DNA from: Candidatus Kapaibacterium sp.
GTDB lineage: Bacteria > Bacteroidota > Ignavibacteria > Kapaibacteriales > WFXC01
NCBI GenBank assembly: GCA_015490805.1
Contig: WFXC01000014.1
Span: forward strand, 1 to 64,000
Length of the DNA: 64,000 nucleotides
Direction of reading: 5' to 3'
Positions 4,010 to 50,116 of this stretch are shown piece after piece; within the stretch, counting starts at the first letter, position 1, and each line of letters begins with the position of its first letter. Made by a program: the position numbers and the translations under genes. Under the pieces are notes generated by a model. The model saw nothing but the letters and a program-made list of their open reading frames with translations, did not search any database and was not told the origin of the DNA.

Positions 4010-4381
4010 TCACCGGCGATACCGACGCCGTCCTCGCCGACGGCCACGACGAATACGTCGACGTTGCGGCTCTTCCTTCTCTTCGATGCGGAACTTCAAT
4101 CTGTCTTCCAGGAATTCCTTCATTGCCAGGATGGTCGGCTTGGGAATGGTATCAAATTCTTTGGAGATTTCTAATTGTTCGTGATCAATCGTATCATCTT
4201 CGTCATCGGAATTCTCTCCACCAAGTTCCAGGTAGGGTGCCAACTTAGCATAAATATGCTCCTTAATTTCCGCCATAATGCCGTTGGCACGTTTGGAAAT
4301 CGCCACCAGCGAAGCATAAACACCGTGTTCCTGAGCGGCTTTGCGACGAACTTCAATTGGATTGACACTATAACCCCGCAT
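4010..4381 (-). CDS. rpoZ: RNA polymerase omega subunit with Arg-rich C-terminal tail
   Basis: 'GVYASLVAISKRANGIMAEIKEHIYAKLAPYL' and 'EQLEISKEFDTIPKPTILAMKEFLEDRLKFR' match Bacteroidetes-type RpoZ. ATG at 4381 preceded by GGAGAGG. Ends RRRIRRGRRRGRRRYRR. Confidence 0.85.
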   Translation of the reverse strand: MRGYSVNPIEVRRKAAQEHGVYASLVAISKRANGIMAEIKEHIYAKLAPYLELGGENSDDEDDTIDHEQLEISKEFDTIPKPTILAMKEFLEDRLKFRIEEKEEPQRRRIRRGRRRGRRRYRR

Positions 4382-4597
4382 GGCCTCTCCGTTTTTATAC
4401 TCCAAAACGCGGTCTTTGACGATCGGTATTAGAAATTGTTGAAATGCAAGCAAACCAGCAATGCTTCCCACTATGCTTTGCTATCCGTGACCCACTCCAC
4501 ACTTTTACGCCCTTCTGCTCTCCTCTGCCAGTGACAATTTCAGGGAGCAAACAGCACTGTTACCACAACGACACCAACTTCTCAACAGCTTCTCTTG

Positions 4598-6034
4598 CTA
4601 CAGCGTCAGACGCAAAACTGGAGATAGCATAAAAAAGTTCTTTACCTCAAACGGATAAGCATCACGCAGTGGTGTGGCGTATTTGCCCTCCAGATAGAGC
4701 CAGCGTCCAACAATGGGTAAATACCCGTGCACCAGCAGGATCTGGTTAGAAAATTGAACGCTAACGCCGAACGGATACGAAGATTGATGCCGATACTCTA
4801 AGCGAGCATAGAGCCAATCCAGAAATTCATCCGGATGATAGGTTCGCAGCCCGGCGATGCCGGAGCGCTGCAAACGGACAACACCGCTGGTATCACGAAC
4901 CACTGCCATTTCCTGAATTTCAGCGTAGCTAACGCCCAAATCCAGACGGAAGAAGTTTTCCGGTGCAGCTGGATTGATCCACCAGTGATAAAACAATGCT
5001 ACCTGCCCCGTACTCCGCAGCAATGGGGCAATACCGGTAATGCGCCGGGCAGGATCACCTCCCCGAATAAACTGCACGCCAGAACGCTGGTAGTTTGCAT
5101 ACGTTGTTGGGTTGATCTGTTGTCCATCTGCGCTTTGCAACGGAATTTCGATGTTCGTCCGGACACCAAAGGCAGGATGGAGCGGCAGAAAGAACTCAAA
5201 GCCCCCGACAATTTTGCCACCCGGTCCAGCATTGAGCCGGCGAGCAGGAACAAATTCAAACAGTGTATTCTTAGGATTCAAACCGCTGGTTAAGCGGTAT
5301 CCACCACCCAAATAAGCATTGAGCAGAAACGGAATCGCCTTGTGGGTTTGCATATCCGTATTCACAATCAGGGGACGTTTCAGCAAAATCTTTGCTTCGC
5401 CTGCCGACCAGAAGTGATACCCCACTTCATCGGTCCCCAATTTTGCTCGCAACCAGAACCCGGAATCTCCAATTTTCAATCCCTGTTCAAAAACGGACAG
5501 CGTAAAGGCGTGATCCACATCAGTTGGTTCCAGGAAATTGATAATCGCTTCCGCCTGTGCTTCGGTAGGCGGAATTTCCGGTGGAATATCTTCGTAGCAA
5601 TACGTTCGTTTACCATCTGCCGGTTCCCCTTTGTAAGGACCGGAATACACAACATCACCACTAATAATTGCTGCCAGCCGCTCCATATAAGCATCGATTT
5701 CCGATGCGACCATCTTTTCACTGCCACACTCCACCAGCAGCAGTGTATAGGGCATTCCCGGCTCCACTTTCGGAGCGGCGGTGATGATAATGTTGTTCAT
5801 ATCCAGATTTTCTTTGGGATAACCAAAAAGCAGAAAGGTCTGGTAAATCTGGATCTGCAAATCCCGCTCGCAAATTCGCCAGCGAGGGAAATATTTGACA
5901 ATATTCGTGTCGATCGTTTTTAATGCTGCAACAAGCTCTTTGCGATCTACCACCTGGGCAGAGAGCGACGAAAGCATAGCAATTGCAAACAAACCGATCC
6001 CGAGGAATACTACCAATACTTTCTGCATCTTCAT
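4598..6034 (-). CDS. Secreted/outer-membrane hypothetical protein (paralogue of next gene)
   Basis: Signal peptide 'KVLVVFLGIGLFAIAMLSSLSAQ', aromatic-rich beta-strand C-terminal half ending '...SPVLRLTL'. Confidence 0.6.
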   Translation of the reverse strand: MKMQKVLVVFLGIGLFAIAMLSSLSAQVVDRKELVAALKTIDTNIVKYFPRWRICERDLQIQIYQTFLLFGYPKENLDMNNIIITAAPKVEPGMPYTLLLVECGSEKMVASEIDAYMERLAAIISGDVVYSGPYKGEPADGKRTYCYEDIPPEIPPTEAQAEAIINFLEPTDVDHAFTLSVFEQGLKIGDSGFWLRAKLGTDEVGYHFWSAGEAKILLKRPLIVNTDMQTHKAIPFLLNAYLGGGYRLTSGLNPKNTLFEFVPARRLNAGPGGKIVGGFEFFLPLHPAFGVRTNIEIPLQSADGQQINPTTYANYQRSGVQFIRGGDPARRITGIAPLLRSTGQVALFYHWWINPAAPENFFRLDLGVSYAEIQEMAVVRDTSGVVRLQRSGIAGLRTYHPDEFLDWLYARLEYRHQSSYPFGVSVQFSNQILLVHGYLPIVGRWLYLEGKYATPLRDAYPFEVKNFFMLSPVLRLTL

Positions 6035-6048
6035 TGCTCACGACCCTT

Positions 6049-7731
6049 TTAAAAGTTCAACACAAAGCTCAATGAGGGAATAAACACGCTTTTGTTCTCC
6101 CACGGATGGGGATCCCGGAAAGCAACGATGTACGCCTTTGCATCCAGGCGCACCGCAACTTGAGCAATAATAGGAACCTGGAGCCAGGCACCGAAAGACA
6201 ATGCTTCGTCAAAGTACTGTATGCTGCCACCAAAAGGCGTGGGGAATTTTCGCGCCATATACTCCAGCCGTCCGGAAATACCACCAATCGTTTCGGTCTT
6301 CGCACGCCGGAACACCACCTTGACATCCTCACGTGGATCCTCAGGCTGCTTGAGCTGATACCGCCAGTACTCCAGTGCATAGACAGTTGCTCCAAGACCC
6401 AGACGCAGTAAGTGATCTTCATCAATGGTCATCCCAAAGGTGTAATGCAATTGCCCGTGCGCGCGGATCAGGTAATCATTATCAGCAGGATCTTCGCGGA
6501 ACGTCAAGGGATCGGTATTCCGATTTTTGTAAGGACTGGGCTGTGCGTCATCGAAAACATAACTAAATCCCAGATGGAAAACACCACTGCGAGGAATCAG
6601 GCGAATGGGGAAATCAAACATCCCCTGCACGCCCCAGCCAGCATACGTCAGCTTTCGCTCCTGTCCCAGCGTGGATGCCAGCGATGCCCAACCGGAAGTT
6701 GGCAGCACTACGCCCAACTGAACATTTTGCCACATTGCCATCACTGCCAGGCGTTCACTCCACAGCGAAGGATAATTGATTTCCTCCAGTCCATAGCGAA
6801 CAGCCAGTCCATATTCGGGCAGGGTTTCATTAAACACAAACAAGCCTTCAGCTAAGGTTGCTGAATCCAGATCTTCCGGAACCGGATAACGTCGATAGCT
6901 AATGACATCGTAACTCAGCCGCACTTCCTGGGGTCGGGCATAGTCCAGTGCCTGCCCTTCCGATACCCGCATATATCGTTGAATATCAACATCAGATGGA
7001 TCGTCTGGCGAGATTTCCAGCGGCTCGCTGACTCCATACACCTTTGGCGCAAAGTTCGTGAAGATATCGCCGATACCCTGCGCTTCCGCCGTTACATTCC
7101 GCACTGCCCCCTGCACAATCGCATTTTCCAGATACTCGTACAGGGTACTGGCACCATACGACGTATCCAGCGTCATACTCCGCAACTCATCGATGGTATA
7201 GATGTCATCCTCCTGGACAGCACGCAAATTATCCTCTACATACGCTTTGCCGCGGGAAGACACAATCATTGCAATGATGACGGGCGGAAAGTTTTCCTTT
7301 GATTCCCTGGTCGTAACAATATACACATTTTCAATCCGCTTACTTGGTCCCTGCAACCGCCGGATTGCTTCCTCTAAAGCTGCATCCACCGCCGGTGTCA
7401 GGTCTACCCCCTGATTCATCAATTGCTGAATCGCTCGACTTTTCACGCCACCACTCAGCCGTGCTGCTCGCTCTACAGCAGTGCGCAAAGCAGGATCGAG
7501 CGTATCCAGCGCTGCTGTATTCCCACCGCCTCCTGCTTCCTGTATTAGTAATTTTCGCACATTTGACAGCGTTGGATTACGCAAATCGTACAGCGAAATC
7601 ATCCCATACCGCCAGTTCTTAAAATACTTCAGGATCGACTTCAGCTCATTCTGTGCTGGCAATTCCGCCACATTCATCATCAACAAAGCACACAGCAGCG
7701 TCAAAAAAGCGCTCCGTTGAAAAATTCTCAT
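6049..7731 (-). CDS. Secreted/outer-membrane hypothetical protein (paralogue of previous gene)
   Basis: Signal peptide 'FLTLLCALLMMNVAELPAQ'; barrel-like C-terminus '...SVFIPSLSFVLNF'. Shares the 'KYFxxWR' N-terminal layout with 4598-6034. Confidence 0.6.
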   Translation of the reverse strand: MRIFQRSAFLTLLCALLMMNVAELPAQNELKSILKYFKNWRYGMISLYDLRNPTLSNVRKLLIQEAGGGGNTAALDTLDPALRTAVERAARLSGGVKSRAIQQLMNQGVDLTPAVDAALEEAIRRLQGPSKRIENVYIVTTRESKENFPPVIIAMIVSSRGKAYVEDNLRAVQEDDIYTIDELRSMTLDTSYGASTLYEYLENAIVQGAVRNVTAEAQGIGDIFTNFAPKVYGVSEPLEISPDDPSDVDIQRYMRVSEGQALDYARPQEVRLSYDVISYRRYPVPEDLDSATLAEGLFVFNETLPEYGLAVRYGLEEINYPSLWSERLAVMAMWQNVQLGVVLPTSGWASLASTLGQERKLTYAGWGVQGMFDFPIRLIPRSGVFHLGFSYVFDDAQPSPYKNRNTDPLTFREDPADNDYLIRAHGQLHYTFGMTIDEDHLLRLGLGATVYALEYWRYQLKQPEDPREDVKVVFRRAKTETIGGISGRLEYMARKFPTPFGGSIQYFDEALSFGAWLQVPIIAQVAVRLDAKAYIVAFRDPHPWENKSVFIPSLSFVLNF

Positions 7732-7795
7732 TGTCCTCTGCCCTTCTTTATGTTGCTTTCCCCGTGTATCATTGCTTGCTACGAATCCACGTTAA

Positions 7796-10042
7796 TTAGC
7801 GCCGACGACGACGGCGGCGTTGCTGTTCCAATTCCACAGGAATATTGATACTTGCCATTCCAAGTTCAGAAACCTTTCCGTTGATCGGATTGCGAACCCT
7901 TGCACCAATAGTAACGCTAACATTCCCACTGACCGATCGCTGACCTGCCGGGATCTTGCCCTTGAGGAACACATCCAACTTTACTTTACCTTCCCCTTGC
8001 TCTTCAATACTCACTTCATCGACCTCAAATCCAGCAACTTCTGACTGCACATTCTGCACACCCAGATCCTGCACATCCTTCATCGTTGCCACCTTCCCAG
8101 CCGTATCAATATATGGCAAGATAAGATCGATATCTCGCACTGTGAGCCGCACTTTCCCACCAGACAACCACTCCGGTTGTGATATCCCCATATTCTGGAG
8201 CTGGAAGTACGGTGGTTCCTGCTTGATTTCACGCGTGACTTCTGGAAGAATTTCCACCTCATCGCCAGTATATGGATGCTCCCAGACTAATTTAAGTGAC
8301 AGATTGTTCGCTTTCGCCGGCAGCGGGATTTTTGCATCCAGTCCTCGAATCGGTGGGGTTTGCGGATCGTGATCAAACCGTGCATAGATTTTGAACTGCT
8401 TGGCCGGGATCTTTCCACCAGAGGTCGGCTTGAGATTGAGCAATAATGCATTCCCATAGTACATATTCCGCAACCGAAATTCTAAATCCTTCCGATTTTG
8501 CTCTTCCAGCCCTGTTTCAAACACTTCCAGCGGCGTCTTACCCACCGTCGATTTCCCCATATTTGTCTGCGTAATGCGCACCTCATAGGTGCCCGGCGGA
8601 ATTGGTTCCGTGGTTCGTGCTTGATAAAAGCGCTTACCGCCTTTCGCTGCTCCCGGCGTTGTTGGCTGCGTTGTCGCCTGTTGATCGATTGGCTGAATGA
8701 TTAAAGGATATGCCTGCAACGTAGCAGGATCGACCACTTCGCCGGTCGGGAAGTTATTGCCTTGAAATGGACCGGAAGCGAAGTTAAAGATGATGGGCAC
8801 CGCATCAAACGTATAAATGGCTTCTGGAAGCTCCACATACGGCTCTGCAATGGTAATTGGCGGCTTCACTACCCGGATGTCAATCTGGTAACTCTGGCGG
8901 TTCTGCTCAAAATACTGTGAAGCATTGGGTGTGAGCAACTTGACGATATAACTATACAAATCCAACTTGTTGATCACCGCCGTTGGTTCCATATCCAGGT
9001 TAACTTCACCCTTCAGCACTTTTTGCTTTGCCTCATTCAACAATCGACCAAAATCTTCAACAGTAAGCTTTCCTTGTACCAGATCTTCAGCAGCCGGTAG
9101 ATTCAGGGCACCCAGAGAACGTTGCAGTTCCTTCTGCACCACGCGTAGATCTTTGATCTTGAGCTTGACCGTTCCAATATTGACCGTAAAATCGGGCGGT
9201 AACTCTTCGGGTGATACAACATCACCGGTAACACCCAGAATCCGATTCGTGCGCGAAACAAAACGCAACTTATACCATCCCGGTTTATTCGGTGGCTGGA
9301 AATACACTAAGAAAGCCCGCTTCCGGATTCGCCCTCCTTCCAGTTGTGCTAACCGCTGCGTTTCCTGCTCTGAGTACACAAATATACTGTCTTTTTTCAC
9401 AGCGAAGTCCGGCGCAAAGTCTCTGGCTGAGCCCAACTCCTTGACGTAGTATTTATACACCGGATGTTGCCAGTCCTTGGTCTTTTCAAGATCTAATTTT
9501 AGCTTACGCAGAAAAACCAGCCGCCACTGTCCACGATCCACTACCGGGCCAACTGGCTGGTTCAATTGGTTAAACTCCACGTGCCTTAAACTATCATCGG
9601 GAGGAAAATACGGTGGCTCAGCCGAATTACTGGGATGGTAAAAAATCTGGTATTCCAGCTCTTCCACGTTACCTAACCGAATCAGTTTTCGGAGTTCCTC
9701 TTCATAGTTCTCTGATTCCGGATCTAATTGCGCCGCTGCTGCAGCAACATCAGTAACACCAACTTCAATAAAATACTTCCGCCACTGCTTAATTTCCGGA
9801 CCCTCAGAAATCTTTACCTCCTGCAAAGTAATTTCATCTTGCGGACGCGTGCTAATGCCTTCGGTCCCGGCGCCAATTTGTAACTGCGCCAGGATACTTT
9901 CCACAATCCGCATTGTCTCCTTTTGGCGACGGATCAGGTTCTCTTCCGCTTCATCGCGCTCCACAATGATAATCAACAGTTCCAGGATCACCGCAAGATA
10001 TAACACAAAATAAACCTTCCCGGCACCACCACCTTTTGCCAT
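7796..10042 (-). CDS. GldM/PorM-like single-TM periplasmic protein (tentative)
   Basis: 748 aa: 'MAKGGGAGKVYFVLYLAVILELLIIIVE' (one N-terminal TM), then a long beta-rich region with repeated Ig-like segments; ends 'EQQRRRRRRR'. Topology matches GldM but sequence similarity is not clear by eye. Confidence 0.45.
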   Translation of the reverse strand: MAKGGGAGKVYFVLYLAVILELLIIIVERDEAEENLIRRQKETMRIVESILAQLQIGAGTEGISTRPQDEITLQEVKISEGPEIKQWRKYFIEVGVTDVAAAAAQLDPESENYEEELRKLIRLGNVEELEYQIFYHPSNSAEPPYFPPDDSLRHVEFNQLNQPVGPVVDRGQWRLVFLRKLKLDLEKTKDWQHPVYKYYVKELGSARDFAPDFAVKKDSIFVYSEQETQRLAQLEGGRIRKRAFLVYFQPPNKPGWYKLRFVSRTNRILGVTGDVVSPEELPPDFTVNIGTVKLKIKDLRVVQKELQRSLGALNLPAAEDLVQGKLTVEDFGRLLNEAKQKVLKGEVNLDMEPTAVINKLDLYSYIVKLLTPNASQYFEQNRQSYQIDIRVVKPPITIAEPYVELPEAIYTFDAVPIIFNFASGPFQGNNFPTGEVVDPATLQAYPLIIQPIDQQATTQPTTPGAAKGGKRFYQARTTEPIPPGTYEVRITQTNMGKSTVGKTPLEVFETGLEEQNRKDLEFRLRNMYYGNALLLNLKPTSGGKIPAKQFKIYARFDHDPQTPPIRGLDAKIPLPAKANNLSLKLVWEHPYTGDEVEILPEVTREIKQEPPYFQLQNMGISQPEWLSGGKVRLTVRDIDLILPYIDTAGKVATMKDVQDLGVQNVQSEVAGFEVDEVSIEEQGEGKVKLDVFLKGKIPAGQRSVSGNVSVTIGARVRNPINGKVSELGMASINIPVELEQQRRRRRRR

Positions 10043-47571: not shown

Positions 47572-48397
47572 CTTGTCGCAAAAGGTATTCCACATTGTCA
47601 AACTGCTGCCGCTGCTGACGGACCTGTTCCGAGGTTAACCCGAACCGCCGCTCCCGGCGCAAATAGTCCACCAACGCCTGGTACAGATCATTGCGCCGAA
47701 AGTCAGGCCAATACTTGTGGGTAATGTAAATCTCTGAATACGCTGTTTCCCATAGCAAGAAATTGCTCAGCCGCATTTCGCCGCTGGTACGAATGACCAG
47801 ATCCGGATCTGGCAAATCCGCAGTCAACAGGTAGGAGGACACCAACTCTTCAGTAATATCCTCTGGCGATAATTTCCCTCGCCGAATATCCAGGGCAATA
47901 AGCTGCATTGCCCGCACCAGATCCCATCGACCGCTGTAGCTCAGCGCCAGGGTCAATGTCAATCCGGTATTGTCCGCTGTTTCGTTAATGGAGCGAAGCA
48001 ACTGTCGGTACACCCGTTTCGGCAATGCATTGAGTTTACCAATCGCCTGCAATCGCACATTATTCGCTTTCAGTTCGGGCGTTTCAACTTTCAGATAGTA
48101 CTGTAGCAACTCCATCAAGACAGAAATTTCCTGTTTTGGACGCTTCCAGTTTTCCATTGAAAAAGCGTACAGCGTCAGGTACTGAATACCCAAGGTTGCG
48201 GATGCTTTGACAATATCCCGAACGCTGTTGATCCCCTCTCGGTGTCCCTCATATCGGGGGAGCCCCCGTTCCTGCGCCCATCGACCGTTGCCATCCATAA
48301 TAATGGCAATGTGCCGGGGAAGCTGTGACGATTGTTTCAGCAATCGTTGAATCTCCAGGTCGGTATCCGTCTGCTCTTGAACCCACTGCTGCGGCAT
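47561..48397 (-). CDS. uppS: Isoprenyl transferase / undecaprenyl diphosphate synthase
   Basis: 'HIAIIMDGNGRWAQERGLPRYEGHREGI', 'LTLYAFSMENWKRP', 'DLVIRTSGEMRLSNFLLWETAYSEIYI'. Confidence 0.96.
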   Translation of the reverse strand: MPQQWVQEQTDTDLEIQRLLKQSSQLPRHIAIIMDGNGRWAQERGLPRYEGHREGINSVRDIVKASATLGIQYLTLYAFSMENWKRPKQEISVLMELLQYYLKVETPELKANNVRLQAIGKLNALPKRVYRQLLRSINETADNTGLTLTLALSYSGRWDLVRAMQLIALDIRRGKLSPEDITEELVSSYLLTADLPDPDLVIRTSGEMRLSNFLLWETAYSEIYITHKYWPDFRRNDLYQALVDYLRRERRFGLTSEQVRQQRQQFDNVEYLLRQDEP

Positions 48398-48546
48398 TCA
48401 GCGGTTTCCTTTCGTTGCTGTTGCGATGGCAAAAACACGAATGACCCTGCCAAATAATGTAGGGAGCGAAAATTGAGGATACTCTGTATGTTGATCCGCA
48501 AGCAACACAACAATATGAATATACGTTTTTCTCGCCGAGTCAAGAA

Positions 48547-49260
48547 TTGAGCACGGCTCTTCTGGAAGGAATGAATACAAAATTGAGCTGGTATGCAATG
48601 GAAAACGTAAAAACAAGACGATGCGAGAGTGGCGAAAAGCTAATGGCTGAAGAAGTGCGATGGCTTGCCGAGCGGTACTATGCGTGGATTTTCGGAGAGG
48701 AATTTTCAAAAGGGGAGGAAAAACGTTTGGAAGAAGCGGAGCGATTTTGTGAGGAAACGGAAAAAGCGCTCTGCTTGCTATCGTGCTGGAAAGAACTTGG
48801 TTTTCTTGACGGAGATACAGCGTACCAGGAATTGTGGGTGAAGCGGTCGTGGCTTTGTGCGATGGCATTAGCGGTATATTCGATCTTTGTCCTCTCGACT
48901 CAGAGGCGGTGGTTGCTGCGATGGTTCGAATGGGTATTTGACTTTGAGATTGATGTATTTGAAGCAGTCGCGCGGCATTATGGAGTTAACTGGTATAAGT
49001 GGCGTTTAAGCTATATGAATCCGCCACCGTGGCAGCGGTCGTTTGACCCTCGGAATTACACACACGAACAGCGGTGGTTCATTTACGGCATCTGGTATTG
49101 TGCGAAGCAAAAAGATTATTGGGGGTGGCGGAAATATGCTGATAAACTTGAAGAAAAACTGGAAATTCACACAGAACCGGGATGGTTTTGTCGCGAGCAT
49201 ATCGAGGCTATTATGTCCGATGGAGCTCCTTTGCATTACCTACCGAAAGTTTTTCAGTGA
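48547..49260 (+). CDS. Orphan hypothetical protein
   Basis: 237-aa ORF (TTG start, or ATG at 48571); Trp/Tyr-rich; no recognised family. Confidence 0.5.
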   Translation: MSTALLEGMNTKLSWYAMENVKTRRCESGEKLMAEEVRWLAERYYAWIFGEEFSKGEEKRLEEAERFCEETEKALCLLSCWKELGFLDGDTAYQELWVKRSWLCAMALAVYSIFVLSTQRRWLLRWFEWVFDFEIDVFEAVARHYGVNWYKWRLSYMNPPPWQRSFDPRNYTHEQRWFIYGIWYCAKQKDYWGWRKYADKLEEKLEIHTEPGWFCREHIEAIMSDGAPLHYLPKVFQ

Positions 49261-49305
49261 TTAAGGAAATCTTCCTGAAAGTAGAGGGCAGCATCAGGAG
49301 TAAAG

Positions 49306-49935
49306 ATGACATCGATGCGAATTTTTGAGATTCGGCACTGCAAGTCAGGGCGCGGCGTGCGGGTGCAACTTTACACGATTCAGAGCATTGGCGAAATGCT
49401 CTATACCATCCAGGTCGGAGAGACCGGGCGTGGCAGGGTGCTCGGAGTGTTGAAGGTAAAGCTATTGCGCGAGCCGGAAATTGGAACTGGTGAGGATGTG
49501 ACTATTTATTATGGGAAGATTGATCCGAAGCAGCGGCTACTTGTAGAAACGGAAGCAGCGGAAGACAATGAGCACGCGATCGTTGTGCTGAAGACACCGA
49601 TTGGATTTCGCGGAAGTAATGATCACCTGGGCGATCTCAAAGGGTACGATGAAAAAGGCGAGCCGATGTTCGAGGAATTTCCCGGTCGGGTTATTGTCAG
49701 CGGCATCATTGCGCAGGGGATAGCAGGAAGGATGGGAAGCGGGGATCAGCTTATTGCGATTGTTCCGCGCGGCAAAGTGTTCACAACGCGGCTCTATGGG
49801 CGAACGTACGGCGAGCCGAAGGTGTGTTATCACGTTTTTGACGGAGAAACGATTCTGAGTGTAACGCATCAAGAGCGTAAGCTCAGCGATGTATTTCCCC
49901 CGTTTCAGTTCACAAAATCGGAGAAAGAGTGGTAG
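49306..49935 (+). CDS. Orphan hypothetical protein
   Basis: 209-aa ORF with AGGAG just upstream of the ATG; no recognised family. Confidence 0.55.
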   Translation: MTSMRIFEIRHCKSGRGVRVQLYTIQSIGEMLYTIQVGETGRGRVLGVLKVKLLREPEIGTGEDVTIYYGKIDPKQRLLVETEAAEDNEHAIVVLKTPIGFRGSNDHLGDLKGYDEKGEPMFEEFPGRVIVSGIIAQGIAGRMGSGDQLIAIVPRGKVFTTRLYGRTYGEPKVCYHVFDGETILSVTHQERKLSDVFPPFQFTKSEKEW

Positions 49936-50116
49936 CACGACAGATGTGAAATATGGTGACCAAATGCGCGTGCAAGCGTAAGCGAAGCGAATGATAATTC
50001 AGAGCATATCTGCATCCTGATTTCGCACTGAACCAGAGAGAAAATCGCTCAATAGAATTTAGAAGCAACTGTCGGTACAATGAGAAATAATAAGGGAAAG
50101 GTCTGCGTGTCTTTCC

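What the first reader, a model, noticed from the sequence alone, without database searches (positions are those of the whole stretch)
4598..10042. Three-gene secreted/envelope cluster: GldM-like protein plus two tandem paralogous outer-membrane proteins
Seen: three same-strand genes with 14-64 bp gaps. The first encodes a 748-aa protein with one N-terminal TM and a long beta-rich periplasmic portion, a GldM/PorM-like layout. The next two encode signal-peptide proteins with matching N-terminal layouts (KYFKNWR / KYFPRWR, then a mixed alpha/beta block) and barrel-like C-termini. Established: T9SS needs GldM/PorM, and this window contains a T9SS-type sorting domain and a PorD homologue. Inference: this is either a highly divergent T9SS core module or a separate, undescribed trans-envelope system.
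Basis: partly seen in the sequence, partly recalled or inferred. Interest (0 to 1): 0.7.

Follow-up and report, generated by a model that had tools for sequence, protein, structure and literature searches.

The report
Candidate ion-driven motor spanning cell envelope
These three genes are the core of a conserved but undescribed cell-envelope machine of Kapabacteria and Ignavibacteria, built around an ion-driven-motor-like membrane pair, and it may stand in for the missing motor of their type IX secretion system.

Summary
The three genes are real and lie exactly where described. The trio is a strongly conserved operon core: in 60 of 66 related loci the GldM-like gene (M) is followed by the outer-membrane (OM) genes, and in 58 by a VWA-OmpA gene, while flanking genes fall into 30 and 34 unrelated families. 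Outside the window's order the operon often starts with a two-helix membrane protein (L). The window's genome keeps L and VWA-OmpA orthologues on other contigs. L has an Arg in helix 1 and a Glu in helix 2 (41 and 42 of 43 sequences), as in the GldL motor subunit; M has an invariant intramembrane Glu and predicted tandem Ig-like domains. The genome encodes the T9SS translocon SprA, but no canonical GldL, GldM or GldN passed cut-off in 119 genomes of its class. Best reading: a divergent GldLM-type motor with its own OM partners, probably powering T9SS (module shown; motor likely; T9SS link about even). Against: M matches no GldM by sequence or in the top structure hits; the L-GldL link is marginal; two SprA-bearing relatives lack detectable L and M.

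The parts
7796..10042 (-). M gene: 748-aa inner-membrane-anchored periplasmic arm (GldM-like layout)
   Evidence: ORF; no Pfam/NCBIfam/PDB sequence match; conserved in 25 of 25 same-order genomes; AF2 pLDDT 85.6
9962..10015 (-). M transmembrane helix, aa 10-27 (within KVYFVLYLAVILELLIIIVERDE), with E21 invariant in 72 homologues; the most conserved part of the protein
   Evidence: Alignments A6 and A8
9158..9841 (-). M alpha/beta periplasmic block, aa 68-295
   Evidence: AF2 model
7823..8899 (-). M tandem Ig-like domains, aa 382-740
   Evidence: AF2 model; Foldseek matches to multi-Ig proteins, E 5e-8
6049..7731 (-). OM1: signal-peptide protein, inferred outer-membrane barrel, paralogue of OM2
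   Evidence: ORF; profile cross-hits; barrel inferred from paralogy, not modelled
4598..6034 (-). OM2: signal-peptide outer-membrane protein
   Evidence: ORF; AF2 pLDDT 85.3; Foldseek AlgE/FapF-type barrels
5585..5908 (-). OM2 N-terminal alpha/beta domain, aa 43-150 (periplasmic by inference)
   Evidence: AF2 model
4601..5509 (-). OM2 beta-barrel, aa 176-478
   Evidence: AF2 model; Foldseek

Best explanation
The trio is the M-OM1-OM2 core of a class-restricted trans-envelope module whose full set is L-M-OM1-OM2-VWA/OmpA. L is probably a two-helix, GldL-like inner-membrane ring subunit that takes up protons through its TM2 glutamate and TM1 arginine. M is probably the axle: its single TM helix, with invariant E21, sits in L, and its Ig-like arm crosses the periplasm and carries motion to the OM barrels OM1 and OM2. 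VWA-OmpA would tie the assembly to peptidoglycan. In these bacteria the module most likely replaces the missing GldLM motor and GldKN ring and powers SprA-dependent type IX secretion. Shown: the genes, the conserved operon, co-inheritance with L, the charged TM residues, the OM2 barrel model, SprA present and no canonical GldL/M/N found. Inferred: ion-driven rotation, the L-M contact, the M-OM contact, and T9SS as client. My own step estimates: conserved module 0.95; ion-driven L-M motor 0.7; T9SS client 0.5.
For: Operon: 66 eligible loci have OM1 in 60, OM2 in 60, VWA in 58; upstream flanks fall in 30 families (largest 6) and downstream in 34 (largest 8). L directly upstream of M in L177/178/183/185/186/198/212, in L060-L064, and as L-M-OM-OM-VWA in L229, L232 and L236, where an L2-M2 pair precedes it in two. 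Of the 22 genomes searched with the L profile, 20 have L and the same 2 (G133, G035) lack both L and M. Own genome: L on contigs C17, C33 and C3, an L2-M2 pair on C3, VWA-OmpA on C20 at 54% identity. L core: Arg 41/43, Glu 42/43. The published GldL TMH2 E49 is strictly conserved and essential (PMC8986121). L2 vs canonical GldL: BLASTP 4e-6 against 18 sequences, hhalign 61%; L2 vs L 99%. L cores beat most of 332 TM-hairpin decoys, AUC 0.81-0.84. SprA over cut-off in 22 of 22; canonical GldM, GldL, GldN 0 of 119 against 18 of 80 for GldM phylum-wide. L lies 21-72 bp upstream of a PorU-like C25 sortase gene in two genomes.
Against: M has no detectable relationship to GldM (hhalign probability 4.7% or less; weak scores against decoys) and no GldM/PorM in the top 50 Foldseek hits, which are generic Ig proteins. 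M's first periplasmic block is alpha/beta, whereas GldM D1 is a helical bundle. The L-GldL similarity is marginal. G133 and G035 have SprA but no detectable L or M, so SprA can occur without this module, or the profiles fail there; G216 shows a complete but highly diverged operon. In the window's own genome nothing physically links the trio to T9SS genes. No experiment.
Confidence: 0.5

Rival explanations
1. A separate, undescribed ion-driven trans-envelope machine unrelated to T9SS, for example for outer-membrane maintenance (Tol-Pal-like), surface motility, or export of something else through the OM1/OM2 barrels.
For: Partners are OM barrels and a VWA-OmpA peptidoglycan anchor rather than GldK/GldN; two SprA-bearing relatives lack L and M; the trio is not next to T9SS genes in the window's genome.
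Against: No canonical GldL/M/N was found in the class although SprA was found in every genome tested, so a T9SS motor is otherwise missing; L sits beside a PorU-like sortase gene in two genomes.
Confidence: 0.33
2. A true but extremely diverged gldKLMN locus: M is orthologous to GldM, L to GldL, and OM1/OM2 stand in the place of PorP, PorK or PorN.
For: L2-GldL profile match 61% and in-register Glu; M has the single-TM plus Ig-domain layout; a similar operon logic.
Against: M fails TIGR03517, hhalign and the top structural hits; OM2 is a barrel, unlike the published FGE-fold PorK (PMC12421860); no canonical GldN above cut-off.
Confidence: 0.12
3. A non-energised structural or adhesin complex: M is only a periplasmic tether between the inner membrane and the two barrels.
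For: M, OM1, OM2 and VWA occur without an adjacent L gene throughout most of the order.
Against: The M TM helix with its acidic residue is the most conserved part of the protein, L is co-inherited with M, and L carries intramembrane Arg and Glu, which a passive anchor would not need.
Confidence: 0.05

Closest known systems
[quoted passage not shown]
   Same: Two-helix ring candidate with a basic residue late in TM1 and a Glu in TM2 at similar spacing; single-TM partner with a long periplasmic arm of Ig-like domains; genes often adjacent
   Different: No family-model match (TIGR03513, TIGR03517); M has an alpha/beta block rather than the helical D1; extra intramembrane Glu in M; many L proteins carry extra N-terminal domains; partners are OM barrels, not GldK/GldN
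PorP/SprF barrel and PorE OmpA-like peptidoglycan anchor of T9SS
   Same: An OM barrel plus an OmpA-domain peptidoglycan-binding protein belong to the same envelope module
   Different: No Pfam or NCBIfam match of OM1/OM2 to any family; the VWA-OmpA protein matches the PorE model only in the OmpA domain, far below cut-off
MotAB / ExbBD / TolQR 5:2 ion-driven motors
   Same: Membrane ring subunit paired with a single-TM protein, acidic residues in the TM helices, coupling to peptidoglycan or the OM
   Different: No Pfam match of L or M to these families; the peptidoglycan anchor is a separate protein here

Membership tests
T9SS core motor GldL | Match to TIGR03513 over its cut-off | tested here: not met
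   0 of 119 class genomes, none in own genome
T9SS core motor GldL | Two TM helices with an essential Glu in TM2 | tested here: met
   L cores: Glu 42/43, Arg in TM1 41/43; essentiality itself not testable here
T9SS core motor GldL | Detectable homology to GldL | tested here: inconclusive
   L2-GldL BLASTP 4e-6 vs 18 sequences, hhalign 61%; L itself 1-3%
T9SS core motor GldM | Match to TIGR03517 or profile similarity | tested here: not met
   0 of 119 above cut-off; hhalign probability 4.7% or less
T9SS core motor GldM | N-terminal TM plus periplasmic Ig-like domains | tested here: met
   AF2 model and tandem-Ig Foldseek hits
T9SS core motor GldM | Structural match to solved GldM/PorM | tested here: inconclusive
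   Not in the 50 listed of 302 hits below E 0.001; generic Ig proteins dominate
T9SS core ring GldK/GldN | GldN (TIGR03523) present | tested here: not met
   0 of 119 above cut-off
T9SS core ring GldK/GldN | GldK (TIGR03525) present | not tested
T9SS overall | SprA/Sov translocon and CTD cargo in the genome | tested here: met
   SprA on G000:C43 over cut-off; sorting domain in the window
T9SS overall | Module required for type IX secretion | not testable with these tools
   Needs genetics or biochemistry
MotA/ExbB/TolQ and MotB/ExbD/TolR families | Pfam match of L or M | tested here: not met
   No such match

The most novel reading that the evidence does not exclude
A wholly new ion-powered trans-envelope machine, not part of T9SS, in which an L-M rotary pair drives two paired OM barrels anchored through a VWA-OmpA protein, found only in Kapabacteria and Ignavibacteria.
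Probability: 0.3. Interest if true: 0.85.

Novelty: new variant of a known kind. Interest (0 to 1): 0.68.

Why it matters
Papers state that T9SS occurs, or may occur, across the wider Bacteroidetes-Chlorobi-Fibrobacteres group (PMC11285876, PMC12421860), while automated T9SS models found none outside Bacteroidetes (PMC4793230). I found no paper in the held library that describes a T9SS motor for Ignavibacteria or Kapabacteria. If right, this module answers what drives SprA in a whole class in which no canonical GldLM was found, shows that motor and ring can be swapped while the translocon stays, and adds a new branch of ion-driven motors. If it is not T9SS, it is a new envelope machine. Either way it gives names and testable residues to genes that none of the libraries searched annotates.

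Tried and rejected
Sequence searches of M, OM1 and OM2 against Pfam, NCBIfam and PADLOC gave nothing useful; M and OM2 against PDB sequences likewise. Weak canonical GldN/GldM/GldL-type hits in G173, G035, G062, G019 and G039 were followed into their neighbourhoods and look like chance: unrelated genes, no gld cluster. M against GldM by hhalign and by decoy-calibrated HMMs was not convincing. Anti-phage defence was considered because of ZorB hits of the VWA protein; these come only from the shared OmpA domain. Conserved chromosomal background as the cause of the synteny was rejected, since flanks vary widely. Local whole-genome scripting was not available. Literature searches for an Ignavibacteria or Kapabacteria T9SS motor found nothing.

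Full report
OBSERVATION. The three ORFs are present at the stated coordinates on the minus strand, 748, 560 and 478 aa, with gaps of 64 and 14 bp. None matches a Pfam or NCBIfam family, and M matches no PDB sequence of note. The window is contig C12 of a 2.67-Mb, 97% complete genome. Near-identical copies (97%) are in MAGs named Candidatus Kapaibacterium.

CONSERVATION. A search of 298 phylum genomes with M found a relative in all 25 genomes of its order (own included), and shorter relatives elsewhere in the class. Extraction of 18-kb neighbourhoods showed M-OM1-OM2 in the same order and strand nearly everywhere. A scan of 85,462 species genomes gave 80 named loci. Of 66 with enough downstream sequence, 60 have OM1, 60 OM2 and 58 a fourth gene. 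Median gaps are about 43 bp (M-OM1), 33 bp (OM1-OM2) and 90 bp (OM2-fourth gene). The flanking genes belong to 30 (upstream) and 34 (downstream) different families, the largest holding 6 and 8 loci, so this is selection on a unit rather than background synteny.

THE MISSING PARTNERS. The fourth gene encodes a VWA domain followed by an OmpA peptidoglycan-binding domain. It is absent beside the window's trio, but the genome keeps a full-length orthologue (54% identity) on contig C20. Outside the order, M is preceded by a two-helix membrane protein, here called L, and inside the order family f6 has L-M pairs. Class families f52 and f57 carry the whole set L-M-OM1-OM2-VWA/OmpA, in two cases preceded by a second pair, L2-M2 (loci L229, L232, L236). 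The window's genome has three L genes elsewhere, one of them in an L2-M2 pair. Of 22 genomes tested for L, 20 have L, and the two that lack it (G133, G035) also lack M.

MOTOR SIGNATURES. The most conserved part of M is its TM helix, KVYFVLYLAVILELLIIIVERDEAEE. E21 inside it is invariant in 72 sequences of the family, and the ERD motif at its end is invariant in the 28-sequence class-wide set. In L, an Arg sits late in TM1 in 41 of 43 sequences and a Glu in TM2 in 42 of 43. In canonical GldL, from the sequences fetched here, a Lys or Arg usually lies at the same distance after a GA(A/S) motif in TM1 and a Glu lies in TM2. GldL E49 is reported as strictly conserved and essential for type IX secretion (PMC8986121). 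Similarity of L to GldL is at the limit of detection. L cores score above most of 332 two-helix decoys (AUC 0.81-0.84; related sequences inflate this). L2 matches GldL with BLASTP 4e-6 in an 18-sequence set and hhalign 61%, while L2 to L is 99%. M shows no such link to GldM.

STRUCTURE. AlphaFold2 models, built from window and scan sequences, have mean pLDDT 85.6 for M and 85.3 for OM2. M is a long N-terminal helix, an alpha/beta block, a helical stretch and about four Ig-like domains; Foldseek returns multi-Ig proteins, with no GldM or PorM among the 50 listed. GldM and PorM are also a TM plus four periplasmic domains, but with a helical D1 (PMC5790014). OM2 is an N-terminal alpha/beta domain followed by an outer-membrane barrel, with AlgE and FapF among the best matches. 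OM1 is its paralogue and was not modelled.

LINK TO T9SS. SprA, the T9SS translocon, is over cut-off in 22 of 22 genomes tested, including this one. Canonical GldM, GldL and GldN are over cut-off in 0 of 119 class genomes; the GldM model rings in 18 of 80 genomes phylum-wide, so it works. A profile of M N-termini finds M only in this class; the single hit outside is weak (E 9e-4). In two genomes L is directly upstream of a PorU-like C25 sortase gene. Against this, G133 and G035 carry SprA without detectable L or M. Detection failure is possible, because G216 has the complete operon in a form only just detectable, but it is not shown.

CONCLUSION. Shown: a conserved, class-restricted module of which the trio is the core. 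Likely: L-M is an ion-driven motor of the GldLM kind. About even: its client is the T9SS. It is laid out like GldLM with PorP- and PorE-type partners, but it fails the family-model tests for GldL, GldM and GldN and should not be filed as gldKLMN.

Noticed in passing
4010-4471 (-): 153-aa ORF just downstream of OM2 resembles RNA polymerase omega (Rpb6, E 0.042, below cut-off); in most relatives the VWA-OmpA gene stands at this place instead.
   Followed up: partly
L107:3871-6300 (own genome contig C3): Second L-M pair (L2-M2), conserved as adjacent genes in several genomes; its L2 family is the most GldL-like.
   Followed up: partly
L106, L112, L119, L124: A third type of L gene is followed in four genomes by a conserved AAA/STAND-like ATPase of about 700 aa; function unknown.
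   Followed up: no
L108:7301-14227 and L111:7743-14954: L gene directly upstream of a PorU-like C25 peptidase (T9SS sortase family).
   Followed up: partly
L036 and L047 (genome G284); L045 and L046 (genome G276): Two M copies per genome: one paired with L and without OM genes, the other with OM1-OM2-VWA, suggesting duplication and division of labour.
   Followed up: no
G133 and G035: Same-class genomes with SprA but no detectable canonical GldL/M/N, L or M: what drives their T9SS is open.
   Followed up: partly
L060-L063, L240, L241: In Ignavibacteria M appears split into a 205-aa TM protein plus a separate signal-peptide beta protein, followed by one or two copies of the OM pair.
   Followed up: partly
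48001-50000: Local reversal of GC skew (+0.18 against about -0.1 elsewhere).
   Followed up: no
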